Part shown: one piece after another, positions 43,202 to 64,000 of the stretch
Numbering within the stretch: position 1 is the stretch's first letter
How the letters are laid out: every line of letters starts with the position of its first letter
DNA from: Rugamonas rubra
GTDB taxonomy: Bacteria > Pseudomonadota > Gammaproteobacteria > Burkholderiales > Burkholderiaceae_D
NCBI RefSeq assembly: GCF_900114705.1
Contig: NZ_FOTW01000015.1
Location: 62,001 to 126,000 of the forward strand
Length of the DNA: 64,000 bases
Direction of reading: 5' to 3'
Position numbers and translations under genes: made by a program
Notes under the pieces: model-generated
What the model was told of the DNA's origin: nothing
The model's database searches: none
Seen by the model: only the letters and a program-made list of their open reading frames with translations

Positions 43202-44224
43202 TCAGCGGCGGAACTCGGCGTAATCGATCAGCCCCATCGGCGGATAGGCGTCGATCGCCTCGGCCACCGCCAGATTGACAATGAGTGAAAAGCGTTGCAG
43301 CGTGTCGATCGGCACCTCCTGTTCGCCGCGCAGCATGCGCTGCGCCTTGTGGGCGGCGAACTGGCCGACCTGGTAGAACTTCGAGACCAGGCCCAGCAGC
43401 ACCGGCGCGCCGCCGCCCAGCAGCGATTCGACGGCGGCGAAGGTGGGCAGCGCGCGCTGCCGCGCCGCCTCGGCGACGGCGTCGAGCTGGGTGAACAGGT
43501 GCGTGTCCGGTCCCAGGTAGAGCCAGTTGGCGCCGCCCTCGCGCATGCCGTCGAGGACGGCGCCGAGCTCCTGCGGCGCCAGGGGCGCGGCGGCGCCGCG
43601 CCGGTCCAGCGGGAAGCTGCTGGCGAGCACCTTGAAGCCGCCCTGGCTGCCGGCGCGCCGCCAGGCGGCGAGGTTCGCCACCGAGTTCGCCTCCAGCCGG
43701 TTGTACAGGATGCCGACGCCGCCGATGGCCCGGTAGGCGCGCATCACCTCGATCTGCGTGGCCAGCGGCGCGACGTGGCAGACGCCCGAGATGTTGCGGC
43801 CGTGGCCGCGCAGCGCGGCGACGATGTTGGCGGCCAGCGGGTCGGCCGAGGGGGCGAACACCAGCGGGATGCGGCGGCCGATCACCGGGTGCGGCCGGTC
43901 GGCCGGTCCGGCCAGGCCCAGCGTGGCCGGGGTGCCCCAGCTGAACACCAGGTCGGGCTGGCCGCGCACGATATCGTCACCGATGGCGGCCAGCCGGGCG
44001 TGGCTCTGGGCCGCGTCCTGCCAGACGAATTCGACCTGTTCCGGCTGCCGCTTCCAATAGTCGACGAAGCCCCGCTCGACCTCGCTGGCGCCGCGCCAGG
44101 TGACCATGTGGATGCGCCGTTTCGGCGCCGCCGCCGCGCCGGCGGCGCCGAGCAGGGCCGGCGCGCCCAGCGCGGCGGCGAGCAGGAAGCGGCGCCGTGC
44201 GGCCCGCGCGGTGGCGCCGCTCAC
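43202..44224 (-). CDS. Orphan ABC substrate-binding protein (ABC_sub_bind-like), end of the RiPP/PKS cluster
   Basis: This is a 340-residue exported protein. The N-terminus ARRRFLLAAALGAPALLG resembles a twin-arginine or strong Sec signal. The mature part has VFSWGTPATLGLAG, IPLVFAPSADPLAANIV and NISGVCHVAPLATQIEVMRAY, then a region like PF04392 (YLGPDTHLFTQLDAVAE, LLGLVSKFYQVGQFAAHKAQRML). The GTG start overlaps the stop of the MFS fusion gene (GTGA), so it belongs to the cluster. No ABC permease or ATPase of an import system is nearby. It may pass a ligand signal to the sensor-MFS protein; that is inference. Confidence 0.78.
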   Translation of the reverse strand: MSGATARAARRRFLLAAALGAPALLGAAGAAAAPKRRIHMVTWRGASEVERGFVDYWKRQPEQVEFVWQDAAQSHARLAAIGDDIVRGQPDLVFSWGTPATLGLAGPADRPHPVIGRRIPLVFAPSADPLAANIVAALRGHGRNISGVCHVAPLATQIEVMRAYRAIGGVGILYNRLEANSVANLAAWRRAGSQGGFKVLASSFPLDRRGAAAPLAPQELGAVLDGMREGGANWLYLGPDTHLFTQLDAVAEAARQRALPTFAAVESLLGGGAPVLLGLVSKFYQVGQFAAHKAQRMLRGEQEVPIDTLQRFSLIVNLAVAEAIDAYPPMGLIDYAEFRR

Positions 44225-47127
44225 GGCGCCACCGCCACCGCCGGCGCCGCAGTCAATTGGCTGGGGCGGGCGAACAGCAGCGCGAACAGCAGGCCGCAGG
44301 CGAACACCACGCCGCCCAGCGCGAGGAAGGACAGCCGAAAGCCGAGCAGTTGCAGCATGGCGCCGGCGACGAGCGGTCCGAGCGCGCTGCCGATGCGTTC
44401 GACCAGCCGGTAGTAGCCGTACACCACCGCCTCGCCGTGGCGGGCGATCTCGCGGCGGGCCAGCTGCGGCACCATGGCCGCCTGGGCCGAGATGCTGAGC
44501 GCCTGCGCCGCGCCCAGCACGCCGGCCAGCACGGTGGCGGCCATGATCTCGCTGGGCAGCAGCATGGCACCGCCGGCCAGGCCGGAGCAGGCCACGCCGG
44601 CGCCGACGAACCAGGCGTGCGGGGTGATGCGGCGGCGCCGCCGCAGCCGCTCGAAGGCGTCGGCGCCGAGCGGCAGCAGCAGCACCATGACCACCGAGTA
44701 GACCATGATGACCCGTCCCGCCATCGCCGCCGAATAGCCGGCGGCGGCCAGGTACAGCGGCATCAGGTAGTAGCAGAACGCCACCAGGATCAGCTTGGCC
44801 GGCACCGCCGCCAGCAACAGCAGGCCGAGGAAGCGCCAGTTCCGCAGCGGGTGCAGCGGCAGCGCGCCGACGCCGGCCGGGCGCGCCGTGGCGGCGCCCG
44901 GCGGCGGCGCCGGCGCGGCGCGCGGCAGGGTGCGCCAGGCCAGCAGCAGCGCGGCGGCGGCCAGCAGGGCGGCCAGCAGGAAGGTGGCGCGGTAGCCGAG
45001 CGCGTCGGCCAGCAGGCCGCCGAGCGCCGGTCCGCAGGCCAGCGACACCAGCACCACGGCGACGAAGCCGGCCAGGCCCTTGGCGCGCGAGGACTGGTCG
45101 GTGTAGGCCAGCACCATGCCCTGCGCGGCGACGAAGGCGCCGGCCCAGGCCAGGCCGGCGGCGGCGCGCCAGGCCAGCAGGCCGGCCAGGCTGGCGGCCT
45201 GGGCCGAGAGCAGGTGGGCGGCCACGGCGAGCGCGGCGGCGAGCAGGAAGGCGGCACGGCGGCCGCGCCGCTCGCTCCAGGCGCCCAGGCCCGGCTGCGA
45301 CACCGCGACGATGAACATGAACAGGAAGATCGGCAGGCCGACCACCGCGCCGGGCGGGATGGCCAGCGCGCCGGTGGCCATTTGTCCGGCGTAGATGGGT
45401 AGGAAGCCGCGCGACAGGTCCTCGGCCAGCAGCAGCAGGAAGAAGGGCGCGCGCATGCTGCCGAGCGCGCCGGCGCGCTCGGGCGGCAAGGCGCGCGGCG
45501 CGCCGTGGACCAGGCCGTAGCGGTCGCGCAGCCGGCGCAGCGCGGCGAGGGCGGCGCGCGCCGGCGCGTCGGCGTCGGCGCCGTGGCGGGCCGCCAGCTG
45601 GTCGGCCAGGCGGCGCCGGCAGGCGCGGTAGTCGGCCAGCACGCGCGCCTGGCGCCGCTGCAGCGCCAGCGCCAACGCGCCCATGGCGCCGGGGTGGTCG
45701 GCGGCGACGGCGACACCCAGGCGGCCGGCGCCGAGCGCGCGGGCGTCGCGGCACAGGGTGCGCAGCGGCCTGAGCAGCAGGGCGCCGGTCAGCGCGTCGG
45801 CCAGTTCCAGCATCAGGAACAGCGCCACCAGCAGGATCACCGCGAAGTCGAGGGCCAGTTCGGCGAACAGCTGCTCGACGACGCCGGGGTCGAGCGCCAC
45901 CTGCAAGCGGGCGTCGGCGCCGCCGCCGGCGCTGGCCAGCGGCACGGTGCGCGACAGCTCCGGCCGCGCCGCGCCGGCGTCGCCGCTGCGGTACAGCGTG
46001 GCGCCGCCGGCCAGCACGGCGAGGCCGGCCAGTTCGCCGTTGCGGGCGCGCACCTCGTCGAGCGCGGCGGCCACGCCGGTGATCCGTTCGAGCGGAATGC
46101 CGAGCAGTGCGGCGCGTTCGAAGGTGCCGGCCAGCGACAGGGCGACCGCTTCGGCCTTGCCCGCCGCCTCGTCGAGCAGCGCGCCTTCGGCCCGCAGCAG
46201 CGCGTAGCCGCACAGCGCCGCCATCGCGGCGGCGGCGATGAGCAGCATGGCGGCCATGCCCAGCCGGCCTAGGCGGCGCCCGGGCAGCGCCTCGGCGTCG
46301 TCGTACATCGGTGCCGGCGCGCCGGCCGGCGGCGCCGTTGGCGCGCCGGCGCGCCAGGCGGCCAGCGCGGCCTCGGCGCCGTCGAGCTGGCGCAGCGCCG
46401 GGCCGACCAGGGCGGCCCAGCCGTCGCCGCCGGCGGCGGCGGGCAGCTTGCCGTCGACGCCGGCGACGGCGCGCGCCAGCTCGCGTTCGAAGCGCCGCGC
46501 CAGCCAGGTGGCGAGCAGGCACAGCGCGGCGGCGGCGGCGCCGAGCACGGCCAGCGCGGCCGGCCACAGCGCCACCGCCAAGTGGCGCCGCGCCTGGCCT
46601 TCCCGGCCGCTGACGTAGCGCACCGCCACGTAGCCCTGCGGCACGGCGAAACTGTTGTCGACGAACGCGCCGGCGACCGCTTCGTCGTCGTCGTCGCCGC
46701 GCCAGCGCCAGCCGGCCGCGGCGGCCGCCGTTCCGGCGCCGCTTGGCGGCCGCCGCAGCGCCGCGCGCCAGGCGGCCGGCATGGCCCGCGCCCGGCGCTC
46801 GGCGGCGCTGCTGTAGAGCACGCGCCCGGCGGCGTCGGCGACGTCGATCGACAGGATCGCGCCGTCGGCGCGGCCGCGCCGTTGCAGCAGGGCGTCGAGC
46901 GCGCCCAGGTCGGCCAGGTCCATGCCGAGCGAGAGGCTGTGTTCGACGACGCGGGCGACGTCGCCCGCGACCAGGCTGAAGCGGCCGTGGCGCAGCTCGC
47001 GCAGGGTGTTGTCCAGCTTGAACGCGACCAGCAGCACGCTCATGCCGACGCTGAACAGGGCCAGGCCGGCGGCCAGCGCCAGCAGGCGGCGGCGCAGCGT
47101 GGCCGGCGCGGATGCGGCCTCAGCCAT
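44221..47127 (-). CDS. Fusion of two sensor-like modules to an MFS transporter
   Basis: This is a 968-residue protein. Module 1: membrane helix at about 14-36, periplasmic domain 37-182 (with ILSIDVADAAGRVLYSS), helix 183-210. Module 2: helix at about 288-311, periplasmic domain 312-425 (DEVRARNGELAGLAVLAGGATLYRSG), helix 426-452 and a cytoplasmic part LLRPLRTLCRDARALGAGRLGVAV that recalls HAMP. From about 556 to 960 it is an MFS transporter (PIFLFMFIVAVSQPGLGAWSERRGRRAAF, GPALGGLLADALGYRATF). The two double-helix units look like duplicated PAS/Cache-type sensors. It overlaps both neighbours by a few nt. Possible role: ligand-regulated export or self-resistance. Confidence 0.8.
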   Translation of the reverse strand: MAEAASAPATLRRRLLALAAGLALFSVGMSVLLVAFKLDNTLRELRHGRFSLVAGDVARVVEHSLSLGMDLADLGALDALLQRRGRADGAILSIDVADAAGRVLYSSAAERRARAMPAAWRAALRRPPSGAGTAAAAAGWRWRGDDDDEAVAGAFVDNSFAVPQGYVAVRYVSGREGQARRHLAVALWPAALAVLGAAAAALCLLATWLARRFERELARAVAGVDGKLPAAAGGDGWAALVGPALRQLDGAEAALAAWRAGAPTAPPAGAPAPMYDDAEALPGRRLGRLGMAAMLLIAAAAMAALCGYALLRAEGALLDEAAGKAEAVALSLAGTFERAALLGIPLERITGVAAALDEVRARNGELAGLAVLAGGATLYRSGDAGAARPELSRTVPLASAGGGADARLQVALDPGVVEQLFAELALDFAVILLVALFLMLELADALTGALLLRPLRTLCRDARALGAGRLGVAVAADHPGAMGALALALQRRQARVLADYRACRRRLADQLAARHGADADAPARAALAALRRLRDRYGLVHGAPRALPPERAGALGSMRAPFFLLLLAEDLSRGFLPIYAGQMATGALAIPPGAVVGLPIFLFMFIVAVSQPGLGAWSERRGRRAAFLLAAALAVAAHLLSAQAASLAGLLAWRAAAGLAWAGAFVAAQGMVLAYTDQSSRAKGLAGFVAVVLVSLACGPALGGLLADALGYRATFLLAALLAAAALLLAWRTLPRAAPAPPPGAATARPAGVGALPLHPLRNWRFLGLLLLAAVPAKLILVAFCYYLMPLYLAAAGYSAAMAGRVIMVYSVVMVLLLPLGADAFERLRRRRRITPHAWFVGAGVACSGLAGGAMLLPSEIMAATVLAGVLGAAQALSISAQAAMVPQLARREIARHGEAVVYGYYRLVERIGSALGPLVAGAMLQLLGFRLSFLALGGVVFACGLLFALLFARPSQLTAAPAVAVAP

Positions 47128-47767
47128 GTTCGCAGGGCGCCCCGGCGGCGGCCCCGGCGGCGCGCCGGCCGCGCGCCAGCAGCGTGCGCAGATGAATCTC
47201 GAGCGCCGGCCACTCGCTGTCGAGCATGCTGTAGTAGACCGACGAGCGGGCCGTGCCGTCGGCCAGCACGATGTGGTTGCGCAGAACCCCCTCGCGCTGC
47301 GCGTGCAGGCGCTCGACGGCGGCGATGGAGGCGAGGTTGCGGTGGTCGATCTTGAACTGCACGCGGGCCACGCCGAGCCGCTCGAAGGCGTGCTGAAGCA
47401 TCAGATACTTGCTCTCCAGGTTGATGCCGCCGCCCTGGTGGGCCAGGCCGATCCAGGTGCCGATCTCGACCACCCGGTTGTCGAGTTCGATCTCCATGAA
47501 GCGGGTGGTGCCGACGGCGCGGCCGGAGTCCAGTTCGACGATGGCGAACGGCAGGTCGCTGCCGGCGCCGCGCCGCTCGAGCAGGCTGCGCACCAGGCCG
47601 TCCATGCCGCTGGCGCGGTAGATGCGGGCGTCGAGCAGGTAGCGCCAGATGCTGCGGCTGCCGTCGGCCGAGTCGGCGCAGGCCAGCGCCAGGTCGGCGG
47701 CGTGGTGCTGCGCCAGCGGTTCCAGGCGGATCGTGCTGCCGCGCAGCGTGGGATGGTCGAGTTGCAT
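47120..47767 (-). CDS. GNAT acyltransferase, RimJ/RimL-like
   Basis: This is a 215-residue GNAT-fold protein. It has the Acetyltransf_3 layout: LRGSTIRLEPLAQHHAADL, AIVELDSGRAVGTTRFMEI, the CoA-loop region TWIGLAHQGGGINLESKYLML and FKIDHRNLASIAAVERL. It overlaps the MFS-fusion ATG by 8 nt and joins the other GNAT gene as ATGA, so all are cotranslated. In hybrid PKS-RiPP pathways GNATs attach acyl chains to peptides; this enzyme or its neighbour is the natural candidate. Its donor could also simply be acetyl-CoA. Confidence 0.85.
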   Translation of the reverse strand: MQLDHPTLRGSTIRLEPLAQHHAADLALACADSADGSRSIWRYLLDARIYRASGMDGLVRSLLERRGAGSDLPFAIVELDSGRAVGTTRFMEIELDNRVVEIGTWIGLAHQGGGINLESKYLMLQHAFERLGVARVQFKIDHRNLASIAAVERLHAQREGVLRNHIVLADGTARSSVYYSMLDSEWPALEIHLRTLLARGRRAAGAAAGAPCEHG

Positions 47768-48683
47768 CAAATTCCTTGGTCGGGTGGGGCCAGCCGCTTG
47801 CCACAGGCCCAGCTTTCGCTGCGCTGTGCCAGGTAGGGCGCCATGAACCTGTCGTTGAACGCCAGCATGGCCGGGCGCTGCCGCGCCACCGCCCAGGACA
47901 CCGTGCGGTAGCCGGCGGCGGCGGCGGCGCCGAAGGCGGCGCGCCACAGCGACAGCATCAGCAACTGCTGCTGGAGCTCGGGCCGCACGAAGGTGCAGCT
48001 GGCGCGCACGGTGTCGGCGTCGAGCCGGTGGGCCAGGTTCCAGCCGACCACCTCGCCCCAGACGGTGTAGGCCAGGGCCAGCCGGGGTTCGGCGGCGGCG
48101 CCGTCCAGGCCGGCGCCGGCGAAGTCGAACGGCACCAGGTCGGGCGGCACCCAGGCCTCGAAGCGCACCGCCTGGCGCAGCGTGGCCAGCTGGCCGGCGT
48201 CGAGCCCGGACCAGGGCACGATGGCGTGGCCGGCCGGCGGCTCGGCCAGGCCGAGCAGCCAGTCGGCCCGCGCCAGCCGCGCCAGGTCGGCGCGGTAGAG
48301 CACCATGCGCGGTTGCGGTTCGGCCCAGGCGGCGTCGCGCAGCAGGGCGGCGAAGGCGGCGGCGGCCGGCATGTTGTCCATCCACGCCGTGGCGACGGCC
48401 TGGCCGCCGCCGCGCACCAGTTGCTGTTCGAGCGCCGCCAGCAGGCGCCGCGCAAGTCCCTGGCGGCGCTGGCCGGCGGCGACGAACAGCGACAGCAGCG
48501 AAGCCTCGCCGCGCCGCGCCAGCAGCAGGGCGCAGGGCAGGCCGTCGTGCAGCACCGCCAGCGCCAGCAGGTCGGCCGCGTCGGCGTCGGCCAGCAGCGG
48601 GCGGTAGTGCGGGAAGGTCATCGCCGCCAGCGCGGCGCCGCCGGCGCGCAGCTGGCCGGCCGACAGCACCAGCACCGCCGCGC

Positions 48684-48687
<4 letters not shown>
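47767..48687 (-). CDS. Tandem-GNAT-like acyltransferase
   Basis: This is a 306-residue protein. The N-terminal half has the GNAT motif A (LFVAAGQRRQGLARRLLAALEQQLV), then MDNMPAAAAFAALL. The C-terminal half repeats the fold in diverged form (YTVWGEVVGWNLAHRLDADTVRASCTFVRPELQQQLLM, then AMLAFNDRFMAPY), suggesting two GNAT domains of which the second may be non-catalytic. The GTG start overlaps the PKS stop (GTGA). This tight coupling to the PKS makes it a good candidate for offloading the polyketide chain onto an amine. Substrates are inferred. Confidence 0.8.
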
Positions 48688-54962
<6,275 letters not shown>

Positions 54963-55019
54963 GGTTGGTGCGTCTTCAGGTTGCGGCGGGCGGGGGGGGG
55001 CGATGGGAATGGGGATGGC

Positions 55020-55060: not shown

Positions 55061-55067
55061 GGGGCGC

Positions 55068-55409
55068 TTAGCCTTTGGGTCCGTCCATGATGACGCCGCC
55101 CGGCACGACGAACCGCGGCGGGAAGAGCGGGCCGTGGCTGTGCTGTCCGCTCGATATGCCCGGGCCGGCCTTGCCGCCGGCCACTGTCTCGAGCTGCAGG
55201 TCGTCGAGCTCGCCGTTGCGCGTCGCCGCCGCCTTGGCGGCGATCCAGCCGGCCGCCTCCTGCTCGCTGAAGGCGCAGCCGTGGGCGGCGCCGAGCAGCA
55301 CGGCGGCGGCGGCGTAGGCGGCGGCGTCGCCGTCGCTGGGCAGGCCGGCGACCAGTGCCGGGTTGGCGTGGGCCATCGCGTACAGCTTCTCGATATTTTC
55401 TATGGACAT
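55068..55409 (-). CDS. Nif11-like RiPP precursor peptide A
   Basis: This is a 113-residue precursor. The leader (1-79) follows the Nif11-like pattern: SIENIEKLYAMAHANPALVAGL, GAAHGCAFSEQEAAGWI, then GELDDLQLETVAGG, ending in a double-glycine site. The predicted 34-residue core begins KAGPGISSGQHSHGPLFPP and ends MDGPKG; it is rich in Gly and Pro, has two His and no Cys. The cluster's C39-peptidase exporter should cleave after GG. AAGAG lies 8 nt before the ATG. The leader matches precursor B in length and motif placement, while the cores are unrelated. Confidence 0.88.
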   Translation of the reverse strand: MSIENIEKLYAMAHANPALVAGLPSDGDAAAYAAAAVLLGAAHGCAFSEQEAAGWIAAKAAATRNGELDDLQLETVAGGKAGPGISSGQHSHGPLFPPRFVVPGGVIMDGPKG

Positions 55410-55437
55410 GTGTTTGCTCTTTTCAGTTGGTGGATGG

Positions 55438-55465: not shown

Positions 55466-55522
55466 GGTTGGCGCCGGTTGGCGCCGGGGCCGGTGGCGCC
55501 CCGTTTTTTCGTGCGCGCCGCG

Positions 55523-55918
55523 CTACGGCAGCATCTTGGCGATCTGCATGATCGCCTGCACCGATTTGCCGCCGTTGCCGTTGTCGGCGCCGTAGGTCAT
55601 CGAGCTGGGATTGGTGAAGTAGGAGTAGCTGTTGAAGGCGGTGCTGGCGACACTGCCGATGGCGACAAACGGATCGCCCTTGCCGCCGGCCACCGCCTCC
55701 AGTTGCTGGTCGTCGAGCTCGCCGGCCGCGATGGTGGCGGCCTTCGCCTCGGTCCAGGCCGCGACCTCGGCGGCGTTGAAGTCGCAGCCGTTGGCCGCGC
55801 CCAGTTCGATCGCCAGCTTGGTGTAGACCTCCCGCTCGGTCACCGCCTTGAGGCCCTCGACCAGCGCCGGGTTCTGGTAGGCCAGCGCGTAGAACTTCTC
55901 GATATTTTCCGTCGACAT
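55523..55918 (-). CDS. Nif11-like RiPP precursor peptide B
   Basis: This is a 131-residue precursor. The leader (1-79) reads STENIEKFYALAYQNPALVEGL, GAANGCDFNAAEVAAWT and GELDDQQLEAVAGG. The predicted 52-residue core starts KGDPFVAIGSVASTAF, continues through a Ser/Tyr/Asn-rich middle (SYSYFTNPSSMTYG) and NGNGGKS, and ends with an amphipathic-looking AIMQIAKMLP. It has no Cys, so lanthionine or Cys-azole formation is impossible in the core. AAGGGAATCAAC precedes the ATG. Ser, Thr, Asn and Lys are the obvious modification targets. Confidence 0.88.
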   Translation of the reverse strand: MSTENIEKFYALAYQNPALVEGLKAVTEREVYTKLAIELGAANGCDFNAAEVAAWTEAKAATIAAGELDDQQLEAVAGGKGDPFVAIGSVASTAFNSYSYFTNPSSMTYGADNGNGGKSVQAIMQIAKMLP

Positions 55919-55983
55919 GTTGATTCCCTTTGTAGAAGCTTGCTGTGCAGCTGAATGGCGCTGCCCCAGGTTCGTCGCCGTAG

Positions 55984-56196
55984 CTACGGTGTGTCGGGTT
56001 TGGCCGGCGCGGGCGGTGCGAAGCCGTCGCCGGCGGCCGACAGCCAGTCCAGCTGTTCGTCGCTGAGCTCGCCGTCGCAGGCCGCCACGCGGGCGGCGAT
56101 GCGCGCCGCCAGGTCCGGTGCCGGGCGCTGTTGCTCGTACCATTGGGCCAAGCGGTCCAGGCAGGCGTCCAGCTTGTCGCCGTTCGGTCCGCTCAT
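55984..56196 (-). CDS. Small protein downstream of the sigma factor (leader-like or anti-sigma-like)
   Basis: This is a 70-residue protein. AGGGAGG is placed 6 nt before the ATG at 56196, which decides this start over a GTG 18 nt upstream. The N-terminal half is helical (LDACLDRLAQWYEQQ, DLAARIAARVA); the second half reads CDGELSDEQLDWLSAAGDG, echoing the GELDD-QLE-VAGG end of the precursors but without a GG site. It lies 52 nt after the sigma-factor stop. Either a minimal regulator of that sigma factor or a decayed precursor is possible. No membrane helix or zinc motif is present. Confidence 0.6.
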   Translation of the reverse strand: MSGPNGDKLDACLDRLAQWYEQQRPAPDLAARIAARVAACDGELSDEQLDWLSAAGDGFAPPAPAKPDTP

Positions 56197-56248
56197 CGCC
56201 GGCCTCCCTGACACATGAGCAACACGGCGCGGAAAAAGGTTCCGTCGT

Positions 56249-56818
56249 TCATGATAAATATTCCCTCATTTCGTCGCTCAGCCTGTCCCTGCCGCGCGCC
56301 AGGCGGCTCTTGATGGTGCCCACCGGCGTGCCCAGCACCACGCCGGCCTGCTCCAGCGACAGGCCGTCGAAGCGCACCAGGCGCAGCGCCTCGCGCATCT
56401 CCTCGGGCAGGCCGGCGATGGCGCGCTCGAGCGCGGCCAGGGTGCCGCGCAGCTGCAGCTGGCCGAGCGGGTCGCCGGCGGCGCCCAGCGCGGCGTCGAG
56501 CGCGGCCTCGTCGGGCAGCTCGACCTCGCGCCGCTGCGCCTGGCGCCGGTTGTGGTGGTTGCGCGCCAGGTTCAGCGCGATGCCCAGCAACCAGGTGGTG
56601 AACTGCGCCTCGCCGCGGAAGCCGGGCAGGCGCTGCCAGGCCGCCAGGAAGGTCTCCTGGGTCAGCTCGTCGGCGTCGTGGCGGTTGCCGACCCGGCGCA
56701 GCAGGAAGCGCCAGACGCGCGGGTGGTGCAGCTCGACCAGCTGGCCGAAGGCGCGCTGGTCGCCGTCGCGGGCGCGCGCCAGGCGCGCCGCGGCGGGTAG
56801 GTCGAGCACCTGGTTCAT
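56249..56818 (-). CDS. ECF-type RNA polymerase sigma factor
   Basis: This is a 189-residue sigma-70 family protein. Region 2 is visible in DGDQRAFGQLVELHHPRVWRFLLRRVGNRHDADELTQETFLAAW and FTTWLLGIALNLARNHHN; region 4 in LPEEMREALRLVRFDGLSLEQAGVVLGTPVGTIKSRLARGRDRL. Regions 1 and 3 are absent, as in ECF factors. The ATG overlaps the stop of the lipoprotein gene. It probably controls the cluster or a linked regulon; no conventional membrane anti-sigma gene is adjacent. Confidence 0.92.
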   Translation of the reverse strand: MNQVLDLPAAARLARARDGDQRAFGQLVELHHPRVWRFLLRRVGNRHDADELTQETFLAAWQRLPGFRGEAQFTTWLLGIALNLARNHHNRRQAQRREVELPDEAALDAALGAAGDPLGQLQLRGTLAALERAIAGLPEEMREALRLVRFDGLSLEQAGVVLGTPVGTIKSRLARGRDRLSDEMREYLS

Positions 56819-57972
56819 CGCGCCGCCGCCTCGGCCTGGGTGGCGAAGCGGCCGTTGCGCACCATCTTGATGGCGATGTGCTTGTGCGGGATGTCGCCGT
56901 TGGCCTCGAAGCTGTATTCGCCGGTCGCGCCGCGCCAGCCGCGGGTGGCGTGCAGCGCCGCGGCGATGCGCTCGGGCGCGCTGCTGCCGGCCTTGCCGAT
57001 CGCCTGGGCCAGCAGGCGCAGGCTGTCGTAGCCCTGCGCCGCGATGGCGCTCGGCGCCGCGCCGTAGCGCCGCTGGTACAGCGCGCTGAAGCGGCGGTAC
57101 TCGTCGTTGGCCTCGTCGCGCACGACGAACTCGGGCAGGCGCACGCCCTCGGCGGCGGCGCCGGCCACCTGCATCAACCAGTTGTCGTCGATGCCCTCGC
57201 TGCCGAAGATCGGCTGGCGCAGGCCCAGCTTGCGCGCCTGGGCGATGATGTGGCCGGATTCGGGCATCGAGGCGGCCAGGAACAGGGCGTCGAACTGGTA
57301 CAGGTCGCGCCAGTTCCCGATCACCTCGCTGAAGTCGCGGCTGCCGTGCAGGTAGGCGCGGCGGTCGACGATGCTCAGGCCCAGCTCCTGGGCGCGCTGC
57401 TCGAAATAGTTGGCCATGTTCTGGCTGTTGGTGTCCTTGACGTAGTACACCGCCACCCGCTTGTGGCCCTGCGCCGCCACGTCCTCGGCCATGCGGCGGC
57501 CGATGCTGCGGTTGCTCGGCGTGCTGCGGAAACACAGCGCGAAGCCCTGGTCGTTGATGCGGTAGCTCGACGCGCCCGGCGTCAGGTAGACCAGGCCGGC
57601 GCCCTGGTAGATGCTGGAGGCGGGCAGCGCGATGTAGGAGTTGAGGTGGCCGATCACGGCCACCATGTCGCGGTCCTCGGCGAACTGTTGCGCCACCAGG
57701 CGGCCCTTGGCCAGCGAGGACTCGTCGTCGGCCTTGACGATGCGCAGTTTGCGGCCGAGCACGCCGCCGGCGGCGTTCAGCTCGCCGCTGGCCAGCTCGA
57801 TGCCCTGCCACAGCTCGCCCTTGCCGCCGCTGAACGGCCAGGCGGCGCCGATGACGATGTCGCCGCCCTCGGCGGCGCGGCGGGCGCGCGCCGCCGCCGG
57901 CGCGTCCCAGTCGCCGCAGGCGCCCAGCAGCAGTGCCAGGGCGGCGGGAATGATGATGGTGCAGAATTTCAC
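56815..57972 (-). CDS. Lipoprotein substrate-binding protein, Leu/Ile/Val-binding type
   Basis: This is a 385-residue lipoprotein. The signal peptide ends in LALLLGAC. The mature part is a type I periplasmic binding fold: IVIGAAWPFSGGKGELWQGIELASGELNAAGGVLG, then VAVIGHLNSYIALPASSIYQGAGLVYLTPGAS and RVAVYYVKDTNSQNMANYF. A GTG start with GGAG 5-6 nt upstream is preferred to a TTG 12 nt further out. It follows the exporter gene by 19 nt and has no matching permease here. Sensing of a small molecule for the sigma factor or exporter is plausible but unproven. Confidence 0.85.
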   Translation of the reverse strand: MKFCTIIIPAALALLLGACGDWDAPAAARARRAAEGGDIVIGAAWPFSGGKGELWQGIELASGELNAAGGVLGRKLRIVKADDESSLAKGRLVAQQFAEDRDMVAVIGHLNSYIALPASSIYQGAGLVYLTPGASSYRINDQGFALCFRSTPSNRSIGRRMAEDVAAQGHKRVAVYYVKDTNSQNMANYFEQRAQELGLSIVDRRAYLHGSRDFSEVIGNWRDLYQFDALFLAASMPESGHIIAQARKLGLRQPIFGSEGIDDNWLMQVAGAAAEGVRLPEFVVRDEANDEYRRFSALYQRRYGAAPSAIAAQGYDSLRLLAQAIGKAGSSAPERIAAALHATRGWRGATGEYSFEANGDIPHKHIAIKMVRNGRFATQAEAAAR

Positions 57973-57991
57973 TATGCTCTCCAAAGGATAC

Positions 57992-60682
57992 TCAAACGAT
58001 CTGCCGCTGGGCCAGGGCGCTGAAGCGCCCGCCCAGCGCGAGCAGTGCCGTGTAGCTGCCGCTTTCGACCACGCGGCCGCGCTCCATGACCAGGATGCGG
58101 TCGGCGTTGACGACGGTGCTGAGGCGGTGGGCCACCACCACGCGGGTGGCGCTGAGCCCGTCCAGGCTGTCGCTGACCATCTGCTGGGCGCGGTTGTCGA
58201 GGGCGCTGGTGGCCTCGTCGAACAACAGGATGCGCGGCCGGTTGACGATGGCGCGGGCGATCAGCAGGCGCTGGCGCTGGCCGCCCGACAGGGTGCCGCC
58301 GCCGTCGTTGACCATCGTGTGCATGCCCATCGGCATGGCGCGGATGTCGTCGGCGATGCCGGCCTGGGCGGCCGCCAGCCAGGCGTCGTCCAGCGTCAGC
58401 GCGCTGGCCGCGCCGATGATGTTGGTGAAGATGTCGCCGGCCAGCAACTGGCCGTTCTGCAGCACCACGCCGAGCTGGCGCCGGACGGCGCCCAGGTCGA
58501 GGCCGGCCAGGTCGCGGTCGTCGTAGTAGACGGCGCCGCTGGCCGGCGCCTCGAAGCCGAGCAGCAGGCGCAGCAGGGTCGACTTGCCCGAGCCGGAGGC
58601 GCCCACCAGGGCGACGAACTCGCCGGCCTCGATGCGCAGCGTGACCTCGTCGAGGATGCGCGGGCCGTCGGCGGCGTAGCTGAAGCACACCTGGTTCAGT
58701 TCGATGCGGCCCTGCAGCCGGCCGGGCTGGGCGCGGCCCTGGCCGACCTCGGTGGCGCCGCGCAGGATCGGCTTGGCCCGCTCGTACAGCGGCACCACGC
58801 CGAGCACGCTGGCCAGCGCCGCGCTGGCGCCGAGCATGGCGCCGAGGAAGCCGCCGAAGGCGGCGTTGAAGGCCAGGAAGCTGCCGGTGCTGAAGCCTTG
58901 CTCGGCCGCCAGCAGGGCGGCGATGGTGAAGAAGATCGCCATGCTCGACAGGGTCGGAAACACGCTGTTGAACACCGCCACGGCGCTGTTGAGCATGGCC
59001 GCCTTGAACTGGTGCTCCTGCTGCTGGGCGTACAGCCGCGCCCAGTTGGCGAAGGCGCGGCCCTCGGCGCCGGTGGTGCGCAGCTTGGCGATGCCGCCGA
59101 GCAGCTGGAACACCAGGCCGGCGATGCGCCCCTCGACGGCGGCCAAGGCGCGGGCGTGGCGCAGGCGCAGGCGGGCGGCGCCGACGCTGAAGACCAGCGC
59201 GACGGCCACCAGGGCGACGGCCAGCAGGGCCAGTTTGCTGTTGTAGTAGAACAGCAGCACCAGGTTGAACAACGCGAACACCGCCGACAGCAGCGTGTGC
59301 AGCGTGTGGCCGGAGAGGATCTGGCGCATGCTGTTGATGCCGCCGGCGCGCGCCGCCAGGTCGCCCGCCGTGTAGTCGCGAAAGAAGCCGGTGGGCAGGC
59401 GCAGCAGGCGGTCCCAGACGGCCGACTGCACCGCCGAGTCCATGCGCCCCTCGACGCGCAGCATGGCGAAGCCCTGGGTCAGCGCGAACATCGCCGCGCC
59501 GAAGGCGGCCGCCAGCAGCATCAGCGTCAGCTGCAGCAGCTGGCCGCGCTCGGCGCCGGGGATGACGCTGTCGAACAGCATGCCGGTGGCCAGCGGCGTG
59601 AGCATGCCGAGCAGGCCGCCGGCCACGCCGGTCGCCGCCACCAGCAGCAGTTCGCGCAGCTGGCCGGCGGCGCCGAAGCGCAGCATGTCGCGCAGCTCGA
59701 CGGCGGCGGCGCCGAAGCCGCGGTAGAACAGGAAGGCGAACGGCGCCAGGCCGGCCGCCAGCTCGGCCGTCAGCGGCCGCGCCGCGCCGCCCGGCTGCTG
59801 CAGCGTGTAGCCGCCGGCGCCGCGCAGCAGCGCCACCGGGCTCTGGCCGTCGGCCAGGAAGCCGAGCAGGTGGCCGTGGTCGGCGCGCCACCAGGCGCCC
59901 TTCAACGCCACGCGGCGGCGCCGCACCCGGCTCGCCTCGACGATCTCGCCGAGCGCGTCGCGTCCGGCCTGGGCCGCTTCGCCGGCGTCGGCCGGGGCGC
60001 TGAACTCGATGCCGGCGGCGCCGCCGACCAGGCGGCAGGCGGCCAGCAGGCCCGGCCCGTCGGCCGCCTGCCCGGCGCCGTCGCCGGCCGGCCGCAGGAT
60101 CGCCGCCAGCCGGCCCAGCGCGGCGCGCATGCCCTCGTCCTGGCGCGCGTTCTTGCGCGCCAGGCGGCGCTGCTCGCCGTCCTCCTCGTGCTCGAGCTCG
60201 ACCAGCAGATGGGCCAGCAGCGCCCGGTGGTAGTGGTCCAGCGCGTCCCAGTCCGGCGCGCCGGCCGGCGCCGGCGCGGCCGGTGCCGCCGTCGCCGCCG
60301 GCCGGCCGCCGCGCCAGGCCGGCGCCGCCGCCGTCTGCGCCAGCCAGTGGCCGAGCGCCGCCGCCGTCTCGGCCGGCGCCGCGCCGAGCCGCTCGCGCGC
60401 CAGGCGCAGCAGGGTGGCGCCGGGCAGGCCGATGGCCACCAGCTGCCAGCCGGCCGCCGCCGTCGGCTGGCCGCACAGCAGCGCGCCGGCTTCGGCGCGG
60501 AACAGCGCGCGCAGCGCGCGGCTGGGCCGGCCGGCGTCGTCGAGGCGGGCCAGGAAGACGTCGACCGGCACCGCGCCGACCCGCCAGACGGCCGCCCCGT
60601 GCAGCGCCAGCGGCGCCCCCGAGCGGGCCGCGCAGGCGTCGCCGTGCTGCTCGAACAATGTGGCAAGGCTGGTCTGGCTCAT
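57992..60682 (-). CDS. NHLM-type ABC exporter, second permease/ATPase subunit
   Basis: This is an 896-residue ABC transporter half. Residues 1-300 form the poorly characterised N-terminal region typical of the NHLM ABC2 group. A permease domain with six helices follows (about 320-640; LRELLLVAATGVAGGLLGML). The nucleotide-binding domain has Walker A GASGSGKST, signature LSGGQRQR and Walker B ILLFDEATSALD. There is no C39 peptidase, in contrast with its partner. The group exports Nif11/NHLP precursors. It starts 10 nt after the upstream ABC gene. Confidence 0.92.
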   Translation of the reverse strand: MSQTSLATLFEQHGDACAARSGAPLALHGAAVWRVGAVPVDVFLARLDDAGRPSRALRALFRAEAGALLCGQPTAAAGWQLVAIGLPGATLLRLARERLGAAPAETAAALGHWLAQTAAAPAWRGGRPAATAAPAAPAPAGAPDWDALDHYHRALLAHLLVELEHEEDGEQRRLARKNARQDEGMRAALGRLAAILRPAGDGAGQAADGPGLLAACRLVGGAAGIEFSAPADAGEAAQAGRDALGEIVEASRVRRRRVALKGAWWRADHGHLLGFLADGQSPVALLRGAGGYTLQQPGGAARPLTAELAAGLAPFAFLFYRGFGAAAVELRDMLRFGAAGQLRELLLVAATGVAGGLLGMLTPLATGMLFDSVIPGAERGQLLQLTLMLLAAAFGAAMFALTQGFAMLRVEGRMDSAVQSAVWDRLLRLPTGFFRDYTAGDLAARAGGINSMRQILSGHTLHTLLSAVFALFNLVLLFYYNSKLALLAVALVAVALVFSVGAARLRLRHARALAAVEGRIAGLVFQLLGGIAKLRTTGAEGRAFANWARLYAQQQEHQFKAAMLNSAVAVFNSVFPTLSSMAIFFTIAALLAAEQGFSTGSFLAFNAAFGGFLGAMLGASAALASVLGVVPLYERAKPILRGATEVGQGRAQPGRLQGRIELNQVCFSYAADGPRILDEVTLRIEAGEFVALVGASGSGKSTLLRLLLGFEAPASGAVYYDDRDLAGLDLGAVRRQLGVVLQNGQLLAGDIFTNIIGAASALTLDDAWLAAAQAGIADDIRAMPMGMHTMVNDGGGTLSGGQRQRLLIARAIVNRPRILLFDEATSALDNRAQQMVSDSLDGLSATRVVVAHRLSTVVNADRILVMERGRVVESGSYTALLALGGRFSALAQRQIV

Positions 60683-60692: not shown

Positions 60693-62867
60693 TCATAGGG
60701 AATGCATCAGGGTGGAGTACAGGCCGCCGGCGTCGCGCAGCTGTTCGTGGGTGCCGCGTTGCACCACGCGGCCCCGCTCGAGCACCAGGATCTGGTCGCA
60801 GTCGCGGATGGTGCTGAGGCGGTGGGCGACGATCAGGCAGGTGCAGCCGCGCCGGCGCAGGTTGTCGTCGACCTGGCGCTCGGTGATCGGGTCGAGCGCG
60901 CTGGTGGCCTCGTCGAGCACCAGGATGCGTGGATTGATGGCCAGCGCGCGGGCGATCTCGATGCGCTGCTTCTGGCCGCCGCTGAAGTTGCCGCCGCCCT
61001 CCTGCAGGCGGCTCTCGTGGCCGCCCGGGCGCGCCGCGATCGCCTCGTGGATGCGGGCGTCCTTGGCGGCCTGGACGAACTGCGCCTCGGCGATGCTGTC
61101 GTCCCACATGGTCAGGTTGTCGCTCAGGCTGCCCTCGAACAGGGCGACCTCCTGGCTGACCATGGCCAGCGAGTTGACCAGGCTGTCGCGCGCCAGCTCG
61201 GCGCGCGGCCGGCCGTCGAACAGGATCTGGCCCGACCAGGGCTCGGCCAGGCCCATCACCAGCTTGGCGATGGTCGACTTGCCGCAGCCCGAGCTGCCCA
61301 CCAGCGCCACCCGCTCGCCCGGCCGGATGCTCAGGTTGAAGTCCTCGATCAGCGCCGGCTCGAGCCGGCTGTAGCCGAAGCTGACGTTGCGCAGCTCGAT
61401 GTGGCCCTCCAGCAGGGGCGCCGCGGCGCCGTCGCGGCGCGCCGCCGGCGGCGCGACCTGCGGGTCGGTCGGGTAGTTGAGCACGTCGTCGAGGCGGTTC
61501 ATGTCGCCCTGCATCTCCTGCACCCGCGCGCCCATGCCGACCAGTTGGTTGATCGGCCCGATGAAGCCGGCCATCAGGCTTTGGAACGCCACCAGCATGC
61601 CCATCGTCAGGTGGCCGTCCATCACCCGCAGGCCGCCCAGCGCCAGGATCAGGATGCCGTTGACCGCGCTCAGCATGGCCGGCACGCCGCCCAGCAGCAC
61701 GCCGCTGGCGCCGATGGCCTGCTGGCCGTTCATCACCTTGGCCTGGTGGCCCGACCACTTGCCGAAGAAGTCGCCCTCCATGCCCGACGCCTTCAGCGTC
61801 TCCATCATCTGCAGGCCGCTCATCGAGACGCCCATCAGCCGGCCGCCGTCGTTGGCCAGCTTCTGGTTGGCGTCCTTGCGGCGCCGCGCCACCAGGCGCA
61901 GCAACAGCACGTTGAGGGCGGCGACGGCGATCCCGGCCAGCGTCAGCGTGACGTCGTAGAACAGCATCAGGGCGGCGTAGAACAGCACCATCACCAGGTT
62001 CAGCACGGTCGCCGCCAGGTCGCCCGTCAACAGCGCCGCCACCTGGTTGTTGATGCCGACGCGGGCGCTGATGTCGCCGGCCGAGCGCTGCGCGTAGAAG
62101 CCGACCGGCAGGCGCAGCACGTGCCACAGGAAGCGGCTCGAGGCGGCCAGCGCCAGCTTGGTGTGGAAGCGCGCCAGGTAGTATTGCTGCAGCCAGGTCA
62201 GCGCGCCGCCCAGCAGCATGGTCGCGCCCATGCCCAGCAGCAGCGGCCGGACCCAGCCGTCCATGTGGCCGACCAGCACCTCGTCGATGAAGACCTTGCT
62301 GAACACCGGCAGCACCAGGCCGGGCAGCACCAGCGCCAGGCCGGCCAGCACCAGGTAGGCCAGCGCCGGCTCGCCCAGCGGCATGCGGGCGCGCAGCGCC
62401 GCCAGCAGGCCGCGCGCCCGGCCGCCGGCGACGAACTCCGGCCCCGGCTCGATCGCCAGCACCACGCCGGTGAAGGACTGGTCGAACTCCTCCTCGCTGA
62501 CCGTGCGCGGGCCGCTGGCCGGGTCGTTCAGGTAGACCAGGCCGCGGCGGAAGCCCTCGACCACCAGAAAGTGGTTGAAGTTCCAGAACACGATCAGCGG
62601 CAGGCGCATCGCCTTCAGCTCGGCCGGCTCCTTGCGGTAGCCCTTGGCGCTGAAGCCGTAGCGGCGCGCCGCCTTGACCACGTTGCTGGCCTTGCTGCCG
62701 TCGCGCGACACGCCGCAGGCCTCGCGCAGCTCCTCCAGCGTGACCACCTTGCCGTGGTAGCCCATGACGATGGCCAGCGCCGCCGCGCCGCACTCCATCG
62801 CCTCCATCTGCAGCACCGTCGGCGTCTTGGCGCGCCAGCCGCGCGCCGCTGTCTTGGTCGCCGCCAT
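60693..62867 (-). CDS. NHLM-type ABC exporter with C39 peptidase domain
   Basis: This is a 724-residue peptidase-containing ABC transporter. The N-terminal C39 domain has the catalytic Cys in VLQMEAMECGAAAL (about residue 26), His in NFNHFLVVEGF and Asp in LNDPASGPRT, all in place. A six-helix permease follows, then Walker A GSSGCGKST, signature FSGGQKQR and Walker B ILVLDEATSALD. It should remove leaders after GG and export the core. Its ATG overlaps nothing but lies 1 nt before the adaptor's stop, giving a continuous exporter unit. Confidence 0.94.
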   Translation of the reverse strand: MAATKTAARGWRAKTPTVLQMEAMECGAAALAIVMGYHGKVVTLEELREACGVSRDGSKASNVVKAARRYGFSAKGYRKEPAELKAMRLPLIVFWNFNHFLVVEGFRRGLVYLNDPASGPRTVSEEEFDQSFTGVVLAIEPGPEFVAGGRARGLLAALRARMPLGEPALAYLVLAGLALVLPGLVLPVFSKVFIDEVLVGHMDGWVRPLLLGMGATMLLGGALTWLQQYYLARFHTKLALAASSRFLWHVLRLPVGFYAQRSAGDISARVGINNQVAALLTGDLAATVLNLVMVLFYAALMLFYDVTLTLAGIAVAALNVLLLRLVARRRKDANQKLANDGGRLMGVSMSGLQMMETLKASGMEGDFFGKWSGHQAKVMNGQQAIGASGVLLGGVPAMLSAVNGILILALGGLRVMDGHLTMGMLVAFQSLMAGFIGPINQLVGMGARVQEMQGDMNRLDDVLNYPTDPQVAPPAARRDGAAAPLLEGHIELRNVSFGYSRLEPALIEDFNLSIRPGERVALVGSSGCGKSTIAKLVMGLAEPWSGQILFDGRPRAELARDSLVNSLAMVSQEVALFEGSLSDNLTMWDDSIAEAQFVQAAKDARIHEAIAARPGGHESRLQEGGGNFSGGQKQRIEIARALAINPRILVLDEATSALDPITERQVDDNLRRRGCTCLIVAHRLSTIRDCDQILVLERGRVVQRGTHEQLRDAGGLYSTLMHSL

Positions 62868-62868: not shown

Positions 62869-64000
62869 TCAGACCCCCAGCTCGGCGCGCAGCAGCGGGA
62901 TCACCAGGCTGATCGGACGCTGCCGCCGCACCGTGATGCTGGCGTCGCACATCGTGCCGCTTTCGATGCGGCCCTGCGGCCCCTGCGGCGACGACCACTT
63001 GTAGCCGCTCGCCGTGGTGGCGCTGGGGATCAGGTCGGACTGCACCTCGATCGGCGCGGCGCCGGCGGCCAGCTGCTGCACCAGCTTGTCGTTCTTCAGG
63101 CTGCGCATCATGCCCTCGGCGCTGGCCGGGAAGGCGGCCACGCTGCGCACCTTGCCGAGCATGACGCCGAACTCCTCGCGCTTGGCGGTCGACGGCGAGA
63201 TCTGCACGTCCATGTTGTTCCTCACCTTCTTGCCGTCGAGCGGGGCCAGGTAGATGCGCGCCTCGAGGTCGTTGACGCTGGCGCCGGTCTGCTCGATGGT
63301 CAGGATCGGCGTGCCGGCGCCGGCCATCGCGTTCTCCGACAGGCGGATCTCCAGCACCCGGCCGTTGTACGGGCTGAGCACCCGCGACACCTCGTTGGCG
63401 GCGCGCATCTGGCTGGCCAGGCCGCGCTCGGCCTCGCCGATCTGCGCGGCCAGCGCGCGCCGCTCGGCCTGGCGCTGCTTGTCGGCGTCGAGCCGGCTCA
63501 CGCCGATCTTCAGGATGTCGCTGCGGTTGCCCTCGACCTCGCGCTGGGCGTTGGCGTAGTCGAGCCGGGTGCCGAGCAGGGTCTGCTGGGTGATCAGGCC
63601 CTGCTCGAGCAGGCGGCTCTGCACCTCGATCTTGGCCGCCAGCGCCTTGACGGTCTGCTGGCCGCTGCCGATGCGCTTGTCGAGACTCTGCTCCGACGAG
63701 CGCAGGTAGGCCTCCTGGCTGCGCGCCTCGCGCAGGCTGTCGCTGTCCAGCTTGGCCTGCTGCGCGCGCAGCTCGGCCAGCCGGGCGGCGCTGCCCTTGA
63801 TCTGGTCGAGCGCGTCGTAGCGCTCGATGCGCGCCACCACCTGGCCCTCGCGCACCGTGTCGCCGACCTCGACCGAGATGTCGGCGACGCGGCCGGCGCC
63901 GGGCGCGGCCAGCTCGCTGACGCCGCCCGGGCGGATCAGGATGCAGCTGCCGTTGATCTTGGTCGGGATGCTGCCGAACACGCCCCAGGCAAGCGCGGCG
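62869..64000 (-). CDS. HlyD-type adaptor of the NHLM exporter (5' end outside the window)
   Basis: About 377 C-terminal residues are visible; the N-terminus, including the rest of the membrane helix (AALAWGVFGSIPTKING), lies past the right edge. The body has the biotinyl-lipoyl-like segment GGVSELAAPGAGRVADISVEVGDTVREGQVVARIE, a coiled coil (about residues 60-200) and the barrel part SPYNGRVLEIRLSENAMAGAGTPIL. This is the membrane-fusion protein that links the two ABC subunits to the outer membrane. More cluster genes may lie to the right. Confidence 0.92.
   Translation of the reverse strand, partial: AALAWGVFGSIPTKINGSCILIRPGGVSELAAPGAGRVADISVEVGDTVREGQVVARIERYDALDQIKGSAARLAELRAQQAKLDSDSLREARSQEAYLRSSEQSLDKRIGSGQQTVKALAAKIEVQSRLLEQGLITQQTLLGTRLDYANAQREVEGNRSDILKIGVSRLDADKQRQAERRALAAQIGEAERGLASQMRAANEVSRVLSPYNGRVLEIRLSENAMAGAGTPILTIEQTGASVNDLEARIYLAPLDGKKVRNNMDVQISPSTAKREEFGVMLGKVRSVAAFPASAEGMMRSLKNDKLVQQLAAGAAPIEVQSDLIPSATTASGYKWSSPQGPQGRIESGTMCDASITVRRQRPISLVIPLLRAELGV

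What the first reader, a model, noticed from the sequence alone, without database searches (positions are those of the whole stretch)
43202..64000. Candidate lipidated-RiPP cluster: Nif11-like precursors plus a type I PKS and two GNATs
One minus-strand run of 13 genes, many overlapping by about 4 nt, links a peptide exporter, two Nif11-like precursors, a one-module PKS and two GNAT acyltransferases. Known precedents are lipolanthines and goadvionin, where PKS/FAS-type chains are joined to RiPPs (a GNAT does this in goadvionin), and selidamides, where GNATs acylate Nif11/NHLP-class peptides with fatty acids. A Nif11 peptide with a dedicated cis-encoded PKS, GNATs and no Cys in the core would be a distinct combination. 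The acyl-peptide product is inference.
Basis: partly seen in the sequence, partly recalled or inferred. Interest (0 to 1): 0.92.

Follow-up and report, generated by a model that had tools for sequence, protein, structure and literature searches.

The report
Polyketide synthase inside a peptide operon
A bacterial operon encodes two small precursor peptides, a machine that builds a carbon chain, an enzyme of a type that fastens fatty chains to such peptides, and a dedicated exporter, so it probably makes lipid-tailed peptides of an unusual kind, although no product has been seen.

Summary
In detail: thirteen minus-strand genes at 43202-64000 hold a complete NHLM exporter, two Nif11-type double-Gly precursors without Cys in the core, a one-module PKS and two GNATs. 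GNAT1, a tandem GNAT, belongs to a group found beside Nif11 precursors and NHLM exporters, usually without a PKS. Precursors beside its clade nearly always have Lys right after Gly-Gly, as both window precursors do; NpuN, also a tandem GNAT, acylates that residue in nostolysamide. The PKS resembles mycocerosic acid synthase, has a decayed enoylreductase and no thioesterase. The PKS-GNAT1 pair, overlapping by 4 nt, recurs in one Baikal MAG. Best reading: the PKS builds an unsaturated chain and GNAT1 puts it on Lys1 of the precursors, a selidamide-like RiPP fed by its own PKS. Against it: that MAG shows no Nif11 precursor and no NHLM exporter, so the pair may make a separate amide. GNAT2 is a generic RimJ/RimL-type enzyme. 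No product is known. New variant of a known kind.

The parts
62869..64000 (-). NHLM_micro_HlyD secretion protein (runs to 64134, beyond the window); a TolC-like gene lies at 64154-65731 outside the window
   Evidence: TIGR03794 346.7 bits over cut-off 156.2; TolC-like: TIGR01844 66.6 bits, below its cut-off 225.15 (coordinates)
60693..62867 (-). NHLM_micro_ABC1: C39 peptidase/permease/ATPase that should cut after Gly-Gly
   Evidence: TIGR03796 1098.6 bits over 853.3; ECG at 25, HFLV at 99, DPASG at 115
57992..60682 (-). NHLM_micro_ABC2 exporter subunit
   Evidence: TIGR03797 913.5 bits over 709.4
56815..57984 (-). Peripla_BP_6 substrate-binding protein, role unknown
   Evidence: PF13458 E 3.3e-54; 193 plasmid records with relatives, all under 60% identity
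56249..56818 (-). ECF sigma factor, likely regulator
   Evidence: Sigma70_r2 and r4_2; overlaps the previous gene by 4 nt; a 43.5% identical relative follows the GNAT in L012
55984..56214 (-). 76-aa ORF, possibly a degenerate third Nif11-like leader (GELSDEQLDWLSAAG)
   Evidence: local leader HMM E 0.007, over the 1e-3 line; no Pfam hit
55523..55918 (-). precursor A: 79-aa Nif11 leader ending AVAGG, 52-aa core starting with Lys, no Cys in the core
   Evidence: PF07862 25.2 bits over 23.8; core
55068..55409 (-). precursor B: 79-aa leader ending TVAGG, 34-aa core starting with Lys, no Cys in the core
   Evidence: 54% identical to A over 89 residues, E 2.4e-23; core
48684..54962 (-). type I PKS, KS-AT-DH-(decayed ER)-KR-ACP, no TE found; probably iterative
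   Evidence: Pfam; motifs; best match among solved structures mycocerosic acid synthase; ER-like stretch aligns to PpsC ER but lacks GGVGMA; 58.7% identical over 2067 aligned residues to the L019 PKS
47767..48687 (-). GNAT1, tandem GNAT; proposed acyltransferase from PKS ACP to precursor Lys1
   Evidence: Acetyltransf_1; tandem-GNAT fold; clade with precursor-linked GNATs; 4-nt overlap with the PKS here and in L019
47120..47767 (-). GNAT2, RimJ/RimL-type acetyltransferase; self-protection or second acylation (guess)
   Evidence: PF13302 E 5.7e-17; relatives in 201 plasmid records, 21 of them over 80% or more of the query, all under 60% identity
44221..47127 (-). 968-aa protein with C-terminal MFS transporter and a long N-terminal region
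   Evidence: MFS_1 at 574-892, E 1.1e-30
43202..44224 (-). ABC_sub_bind protein without its ABC transporter among the 13 genes, role unknown
   Evidence: PF04392 E 3.7e-20

Best explanation
A dedicated lipidated-RiPP operon. Shown: the genes, their order, the family of GNAT1, the Lys after Gly-Gly, the PKS domain set. Inferred: the PKS, working iteratively, builds a chain on its ACP which, since its own enoylreductase is decayed, stays unsaturated (or is reduced by an enzyme elsewhere). Lacking a thioesterase, it is off-loaded by GNAT1, which moves it from ACP or CoA to the side-chain amine of Lys1 of both Nif11 precursors while the leader is still attached. ABC1 then cuts after Gly-Gly and the ABC1/ABC2/HlyD/TolC channel exports two lipopeptides. 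GNAT2, the MFS protein and the binding proteins serve protection, sensing or transport (guess). Confidence is for a PKS-derived acyl group put on the precursors by GNAT1; the Lys1 side chain as site is somewhat less sure.
For: PKS and GNAT1 overlap by 4 nt, and GNAT1/GNAT2/MFS/ABC_sub_bind overlap in turn. No minus-strand terminator-like site in 54900-56300. GNAT1 relatives sit beside a Nif11-like precursor in 11 of the 16 other loci read, among them 10 of the 11 from Pseudomonadota other than L019 (two pairs, L045/L046 and L065/L066, are near copies). Tree of 18 GNAT rows: a 98/97 split separates the window's clade from the rest. GG-bearing precursors beside the window's clade, or in the same genome, have Lys next in 14 of 15 cases, against 0 of 9 beside the other clade; by locus 6 of 6 against 0 of 5, Fisher p 0.0022 on these hand-entered counts. 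NpuN, described as a tandem GNAT, acylates Lys1 of a Nif11 precursor (PMC13060382, sections 9 and 11). The PKS-GNAT1 pair with a 4-nt overlap recurs in L019; the two GNATs are sisters at 100/99 and share an insert at window residues 191-196 (gap in 15 of 18 rows at 191, in 16 of 18 at 192-196).
Against: No product known. L019's MAG (3.1 Mb, completeness not given) has no Nif11 match and no NHLM ABC1 or HlyD over cut-off, so the pair may work without a RiPP. PKS plus precursors together are seen in the window only; none of 293 other genomes of the family gave a GNAT1 relative or a precursor-A relative at the limits used. The Lys1 correlation rests on few loci; leaders and GNATs may simply share ancestry, the leader HMM includes the Lys column, and one of the six loci (L067) is outside the tree. 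NpuN itself was not compared. In L012, 1 of 3 precursors lacks Lys1. The operon genes BP6, MFS, ABC_sub_bind and GNAT2 have no clear place in the scheme.
Confidence: 0.58

Rival explanations
1. PKS and GNAT1 form a self-contained cassette that makes a small polyketide amide (chain on a free amino acid or amine), which was inserted into, or only shares regulation with, a Nif11/NHLM operon.
For: In L019 the pair has no precursor within the sequenced contig, and the MAG shows no Nif11 match and no NHLM ABC1 or HlyD over cut-off. L019's GNAT has a longer branch than the window's (0.87 against 0.34) and Glu in place of the Asp of PDLVPF. Of six GNAT1 loci searched with the PKS, only L019 has it.
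Against: L019's contig ends 335 nt before the PKS and the MAG may be incomplete. Window GNAT1 belongs to a clade linked to precursors with Lys1, and the window precursors have Lys1 and lie directly upstream of the PKS.
Confidence: 0.22
2. An ordinary selidamide-type RiPP: GNAT1 uses a fatty acyl group from primary metabolism, and the PKS product is a separate or companion metabolite.
For: Relatives of GNAT1 beside precursors lack a neighbouring PKS in Xylophilus, L012, L018 and L049. Phaeornamide takes its fatty acid from primary metabolism (PMC9505594 passages).
Against: The 4-nt PKS-GNAT1 overlap, also in L019, and the sister relationship of the two PKS-linked GNATs.
Confidence: 0.1
3. Goadvionin-like N-terminal acylation: GNAT1 acylates the alpha-amine of the core after leader removal, not the Lys1 side chain.
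For: N-terminal acylation with a polyketide or fatty acid chain is the known PKS-RiPP precedent (PMC13060382, PMC10435860 and PMC10373908 passages). Lys1 carries both amines.
Against: The only protease among the 13 genes is the C39 domain of the exporter, which would free the alpha-amine during export (inference). Lys, not just any residue, is kept at position 1. NpuN acts on Lys1.
Confidence: 0.08

Closest known systems
Selidamides, above all nostolysamides (NpuA/NpuN); also phaeornamide and kamptornamide
   Same: Nif11/NHLP leader with double Gly, tandem GNAT (NpuN), Lys at core position 1 (nostolysamide), peptidase-containing exporter (PMC13060382 passages and sections 9 and 11)
   Different: No lanthionine synthetase among the 13 genes, no Cys in the core, a PKS in the operon where phaeornamide draws on primary metabolism
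Goadvionins and lipolanthines (polyketide/fatty acid-RiPP hybrids)
   Same: Ribosomal peptide joined to a polyketide or fatty acid chain; GNATs attach the acyl group (PMC13060382 passages)
   Different: Those are class III lanthipeptides with an avionin ring and N-terminal acylation (PMC10435860, PMC10373908 and PMC13060382 passages); here there is no Cys in the core and no lanthionine synthetase in the 13 genes
Mycocerosic acid synthase
   Same: Same domain order and best match among solved structures
   Different: Enoylreductase decayed here, partner is a GNAT
Nif11 - radical SAM - GNAT - NHLM cluster of an Aminobacter plasmid (and an IS-rich Mesorhizobium one)
   Same: GNAT on the same side of the tree, same leader type, Lys after Gly-Gly, NHLM exporter in Aminobacter
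   Different: Radical SAM epimerase and C-methyltransferase in place of a PKS

Membership tests
Selidamide-type RiPP | GNAT acylates an Orn or Lys side chain | not testable with these tools
   needs a product; Lys1 conservation only suggests it
Selidamide-type RiPP | Nif11 or NHLP leader ending in Gly-Gly | tested here: met
   precursor A over Pfam cut-off; A and B leaders end VAGG. A is under the NCBIfam cut-off and B has no family hit
Selidamide-type RiPP | GNAT of the NpuN kind (tandem GNAT with N-terminal P-loop) | tested here: inconclusive
   tandem-GNAT fold and RRQGLA P-loop in the N-terminal half; NpuN sequence not in hand, so no direct comparison
Selidamide-type RiPP | acyl group from primary metabolism | not testable with these tools
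   a cis-encoded PKS suggests otherwise
Lipolanthine/goadvionin | class III lanthionine synthetase and avionin ring (Ser and Cys; recalled) | tested here: not met
   no such gene among the 13; no Cys in either core
Lipolanthine/goadvionin | PKS/FAS-derived chain joined to a ribosomal peptide | not testable with these tools
   genes present, product unknown
NHLM-exported peptide cluster | HlyD, ABC1 with peptidase, ABC2 | tested here: met
   all three over their NCBIfam cut-offs
Iterative MAS-like PKS | KS-AT-DH-ER-KR-ACP order in one chain | tested here: met
   the ER is present only as a decayed domain
Iterative MAS-like PKS | enoylreductase with the cofactor loop GGVGMA | tested here: not met
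   window reads AGGANAAPW where PpsC reads ATGGVGMAA; L019 has lost it too
Iterative MAS-like PKS | one module used repeatedly | not testable with these tools
   inferred from a single module and the MAS match

The most novel reading that the evidence does not exclude
A pair of Gram-negative bacteriocin-like peptides whose first core residue, Lys1, carries an unsaturated, possibly polyene, polyketide chain handed by a tandem GNAT directly from the ACP of an enoylreductase-dead iterative PKS: selidamide-like lysine acylation fed by a dedicated PKS, outside the lanthipeptides.
Probability: 0.38. Interest if true: 0.82.

Novelty: new variant of a known kind. Interest (0 to 1): 0.66.

Why it matters
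Lipidated RiPPs are few, and the polyketide-RiPP hybrids that I could read about are class III lanthipeptides. A side-chain-acylating GNAT coupled to its own PKS would join two logics known apart, give an enzyme pair for putting polyketide chains on Lys1 of a peptide, and offer a rule (GNAT clade predicts Lys after Gly-Gly) that can be tested on other clusters.

Tried and rejected
Considered and dropped: both GNATs as lipidating enzymes (GNAT2 has relatives in 201 plasmid records, led by Enterobacter 29, Klebsiella 20 and Streptomyces 18); lanthionine, YcaO or radical SAM maturation (none among the 13 genes); a plain KS-AT-DH-KR-ACP module (a decayed ER is present). Searches that led nowhere: decayed-ER segment on plasmids, no match; GNAT alignment in viral contigs, 27 pattern stretches, none a relative; VIA-align library not available. 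A background rate for Lys after Gly-Gly in precursors without a GNAT could not be set: two samples of 200 and 249 genomes, own genome included, gave few true precursors. Ten stretches were fetched for the first sample: two are Xylophilus, and of the other eight two held a precursor-like ORF without Lys there (L073 NAG-R, L079 AAGG-V), two only short Nif11 proteins without Gly-Gly (L075, L077) and four no leader-HMM match (L076, L080, L081, L082); none of the ten held a GNAT1 relative at E 1e-6. For the second sample the new loci L083-L087 were not read.

Rows left out of counts: L016 and L017 (match over one GNAT domain only); Mesorhizobium hits H6, H10 and H11 (not fetched); L020 and L022 (same contigs as L010/L011 and L012). 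L067 is in the precursor count but not in the tree, because its GNAT lies in two frames. Three hits without a true Gly-Gly (Xylophilus SAG-R, L071 TAG-L, window 76-aa ORF) are outside the 14 of 15 and 0 of 9, and so is the annotated NHLP precursor of L070 (GG-I), which came from the annotation, not from the HMM.

Full report
WHAT IS THERE. The window is part of a 202-kb contig of a 6.83-Mb draft genome. The minus strand from 64134 down to 43202 carries 13 reading frames in one direction, preceded by a TolC-like gene at 64154-65731. In order of transcription: NHLM HlyD, NHLM ABC1 with C39 peptidase, NHLM ABC2 (each over its NCBIfam cut-off), a Peripla_BP_6 protein, an ECF sigma factor, a 76-aa ORF, Nif11 precursor A, precursor B, PKS, GNAT1, GNAT2, a 968-aa MFS protein and an ABC_sub_bind protein. 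My simple codon-position caller picked 8 of the 13 unaided; GNAT1, GNAT2, the ECF and ABC_sub_bind rest on family matches, the 76-aa ORF on little. Five of the 12 junctions overlap, three by exactly 4 nt (HlyD/ABC1 gap). The gaps before precursor A, between A and B, and between B and the PKS are 65, 113 and 105 nt; the consensus scan of 54900-56300 finds no promoter-like site and only plus-strand terminator-like sites, at chance level. GC is 75.5% in 43202-64000 against 67.0% in the rest of the window, which hints at acquisition from elsewhere but does not prove it.

PRECURSORS. A (131 aa) and B (113 aa) are 54% identical over 89 residues; both have 79-residue leaders ending in VAGG, cores of 52 and 34 residues that both begin with Lys, and no Cys in the core. 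A passes Pfam's Nif11 cut-off (25.2 against 23.8 bits) but not NCBIfam's (22.4 against 32.3); B has no family hit. The 76-aa ORF has a leader-like GELSDEQLDWLSAAG stretch (E 0.007).

PKS. KS, AT, DH, KR and ACP are found by Pfam with the expected motifs (patterns recalled; positions). The best solved match is mycocerosic acid synthase, aligned over residues 14-1928. Between DH and KR lies a domain that aligns to the enoylreductase of PpsC and of a fatty acid synthase, but the cofactor loop is gone: PpsC reads ATGGVGMAA where the window reads AGGANAAPW; the L019 orthologue has lost it too, with other letters. Pfam found no thioesterase. So the chain should stay unsaturated unless another enzyme reduces it, and needs a partner for release (inference).

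GNAT1 AND ITS KIN. None of 293 other genomes of the same family has a GNAT1 relative (E 1e-10) or a precursor-A relative (E 1e-3) (294 searched with the own genome). In the order, 2 of 398 others have one (G460, G639). In the phylum, with a three-row alignment, 4 of 397 others match: G460 again, G816, and G939 and G959, which match over one GNAT domain only. A scan of genome contigs gave 4 loci: L019, Xylophilus sp. Leaf220 (same contig as G460), L021 and L022 (same contig as L012 of G639). The order of L019's genome gave, in 145 genomes, itself and G1103. The plasmid collection gave 13 records with the Xylophilus GNAT as query; I read 10 of them.

NEIGHBOURS. I read 16 loci with a GNAT1 relative besides the window: Xylophilus, L012, L018, L021, L049, L045, L046, L069, L070, L071, L072, four cyanobacterial plasmid loci (L065-L068) and L019. 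A leader HMM seeded with A and B finds a precursor-like ORF (E 1e-3 or better) in 11 of 16: the Pseudomonadota loci other than L021 and L019, plus L067. NHLM exporter genes are beside the GNAT in Xylophilus, L012 (part, contig end), L018, L021, L049, L046, L070 and L071; a C39 protein and an ABC protein are annotated in L069; no NHLM gene is annotated in L045, L065, L066 or L068; L067 and L072 have no protein-coding annotation. L012 also has an ECF sigma factor 43.5% identical to the window's beside the GNAT. The window PKS was sought by tblastn in Xylophilus, L012, L018, L021, L049 and L019 and found in L019 only; the plasmid loci were judged by annotation where there is any, and show none. 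So GNAT plus precursor looks like the wider partnership and the PKS like an addition.

LYS AFTER GLY-GLY. The tree of 18 GNAT rows has a 98/97 split. On the window's side are window, L019, Xylophilus, L012, L021, L049, L045, L046, L065, L066, L068. GG-bearing precursors linked to this side: window 2, Xylophilus 5 (2 at the GNAT locus, 3 elsewhere in the genome), L012 3, L045 1, L046 1, L049 2, and L067 1 (its GNAT is outside the tree). The next residue is Lys in 14 of 15, the exception being one L012 precursor. On the other side (L018 3, L069 1, L070 1, L071 3, L072 1) it is Lys in 0 of 9. By locus, L045 and L046 counted once: 6 of 6 against 0 of 5, Fisher p 0.0022. Two precursor-like ORFs without a GNAT1 relative nearby lack it too (L073, L079), too few for a background rate. 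Caveats: shared ancestry of leaders, paralogues within a genome, an HMM that includes the Lys column. In nostolysamide NpuN acylates Lys1 of a Nif11 precursor, and of the mutants only K3A still took the acyl group (PMC13060382, section 9), which makes Lys1 the obvious candidate here.

STRUCTURE. AlphaFold2 with five rows gives mean pLDDT 81.2 and pTM 0.75. Foldseek's best matches are tandem GNATs, first the one from clavulanic acid biosynthesis (2wpx, E 1.1e-12). The stretch 177-197, which includes the insert shared by both PKS-linked GNATs (residues 191-196; gap in 15 of 18 rows at 191 and in 16 of 18 at 192-196), is modelled at pLDDT below 50, so its role (ACP docking is a guess) stays open. 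NpuN is also described as a tandem GNAT with its P-loop in the N-terminal half (section 11); GNAT1 has RRQGLA there.

THE PAIR ELSEWHERE. L019 (Baikal-deep-G147 MAG, 8199 bp) carries a PKS 58.7% identical over 2067 aligned residues, with the same decayed ER, followed by a GNAT1 relative with a 4-nt ATGA overlap; the two GNATs are 44% identical and sisters at 100/99. This coupled pair, seen twice, is the best evidence that GNAT1 handles the PKS chain. But the 335 nt before the PKS and the 617 nt after the GNAT hold no recognised precursor, and the MAG has no Nif11 match at E 0.1 and no NHLM ABC1 or HlyD over cut-off. Completeness of the MAG is not given. This is the main result against the RiPP reading, and the reason for a confidence of 0.58.

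LITERATURE. Searches of the open full-text library for Nif11 with GNAT, PKS and RiPP, selidamide, lipopeptide/GNAT/RiPP/polyketide/goadvionin, Nif11/PKS/precursor peptide/lipidation (15 of 21 listed), iterative PKS with ribosomal lipopeptides (15 of 17 listed), lipolanthine with polyketide (15 of 20 listed) and Nif11 with GNAT listed no paper that, from title and abstract start or the passages read, describes a Nif11 precursor with a dedicated PKS. I read passages of PMC13060382 (plus sections 9 and 11), PMC9505594, PMC10373908, PMC10435860, PMC12636437, PMC12703449, PMC2887384 and PMC7726476, none whole. [quoted passage not shown] its supplementary cluster lists were not seen and could contain this cluster. 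The papers on the first selidamides and on non-modular FAS lipopeptides were not held; what I say of them is from citing papers.

VERDICT. Real, rare and coherent: a RiPP-type operon with a Lys1-type tandem GNAT and a coupled PKS. The product is inferred. A new variant of a known kind, of good interest because the central claim can be tested with one co-expression experiment.

Noticed in passing
L065:7696-9807, L066:7696-9807, L068:7828-9822: Cyanobacterial plasmid proteins annotated TIGR03032 carry a GNAT1-like tandem GNAT towards their C-terminal end; cadherin-like or Ig-like domain protein genes follow in L065 and L068. Acylation of a non-RiPP protein is possible.
   Followed up: no
window 44221-47127: 968-aa protein: MFS transporter at 574-892 behind about 560 residues with further hydrophobic segments and a weak SiaA match far below its cut-off; an unusual fusion that may couple sensing to transport.
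   Followed up: partly
window 55984-56214 and Xylophilus L011:1020-1424 (joined coordinates 20020-20424): Small ORFs with a Nif11-like leader whose cleavage site reads SAAG or SAG instead of GG, near the exporter genes in both clusters.
   Followed up: partly
window 14917-18192: Run of plus-strand genes, several with prepilin-like N-termini (GFTLIELIVVI and the like), probably a pilus or pseudopilin cluster.
   Followed up: no
L067 (Microcoleus vaginatus PCC 9802 plasmid) 8947-9868: The GNAT lies in two overlapping frames, so it is broken or misread; a precursor-like ORF ending SGG-K lies upstream at 5725-5904.
   Followed up: no
window 38001-42000: GC falls to about 58% beside the GC-rich operon; two genes there look like flavoproteins from their N-termini (recalled motif).
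   Followed up: no
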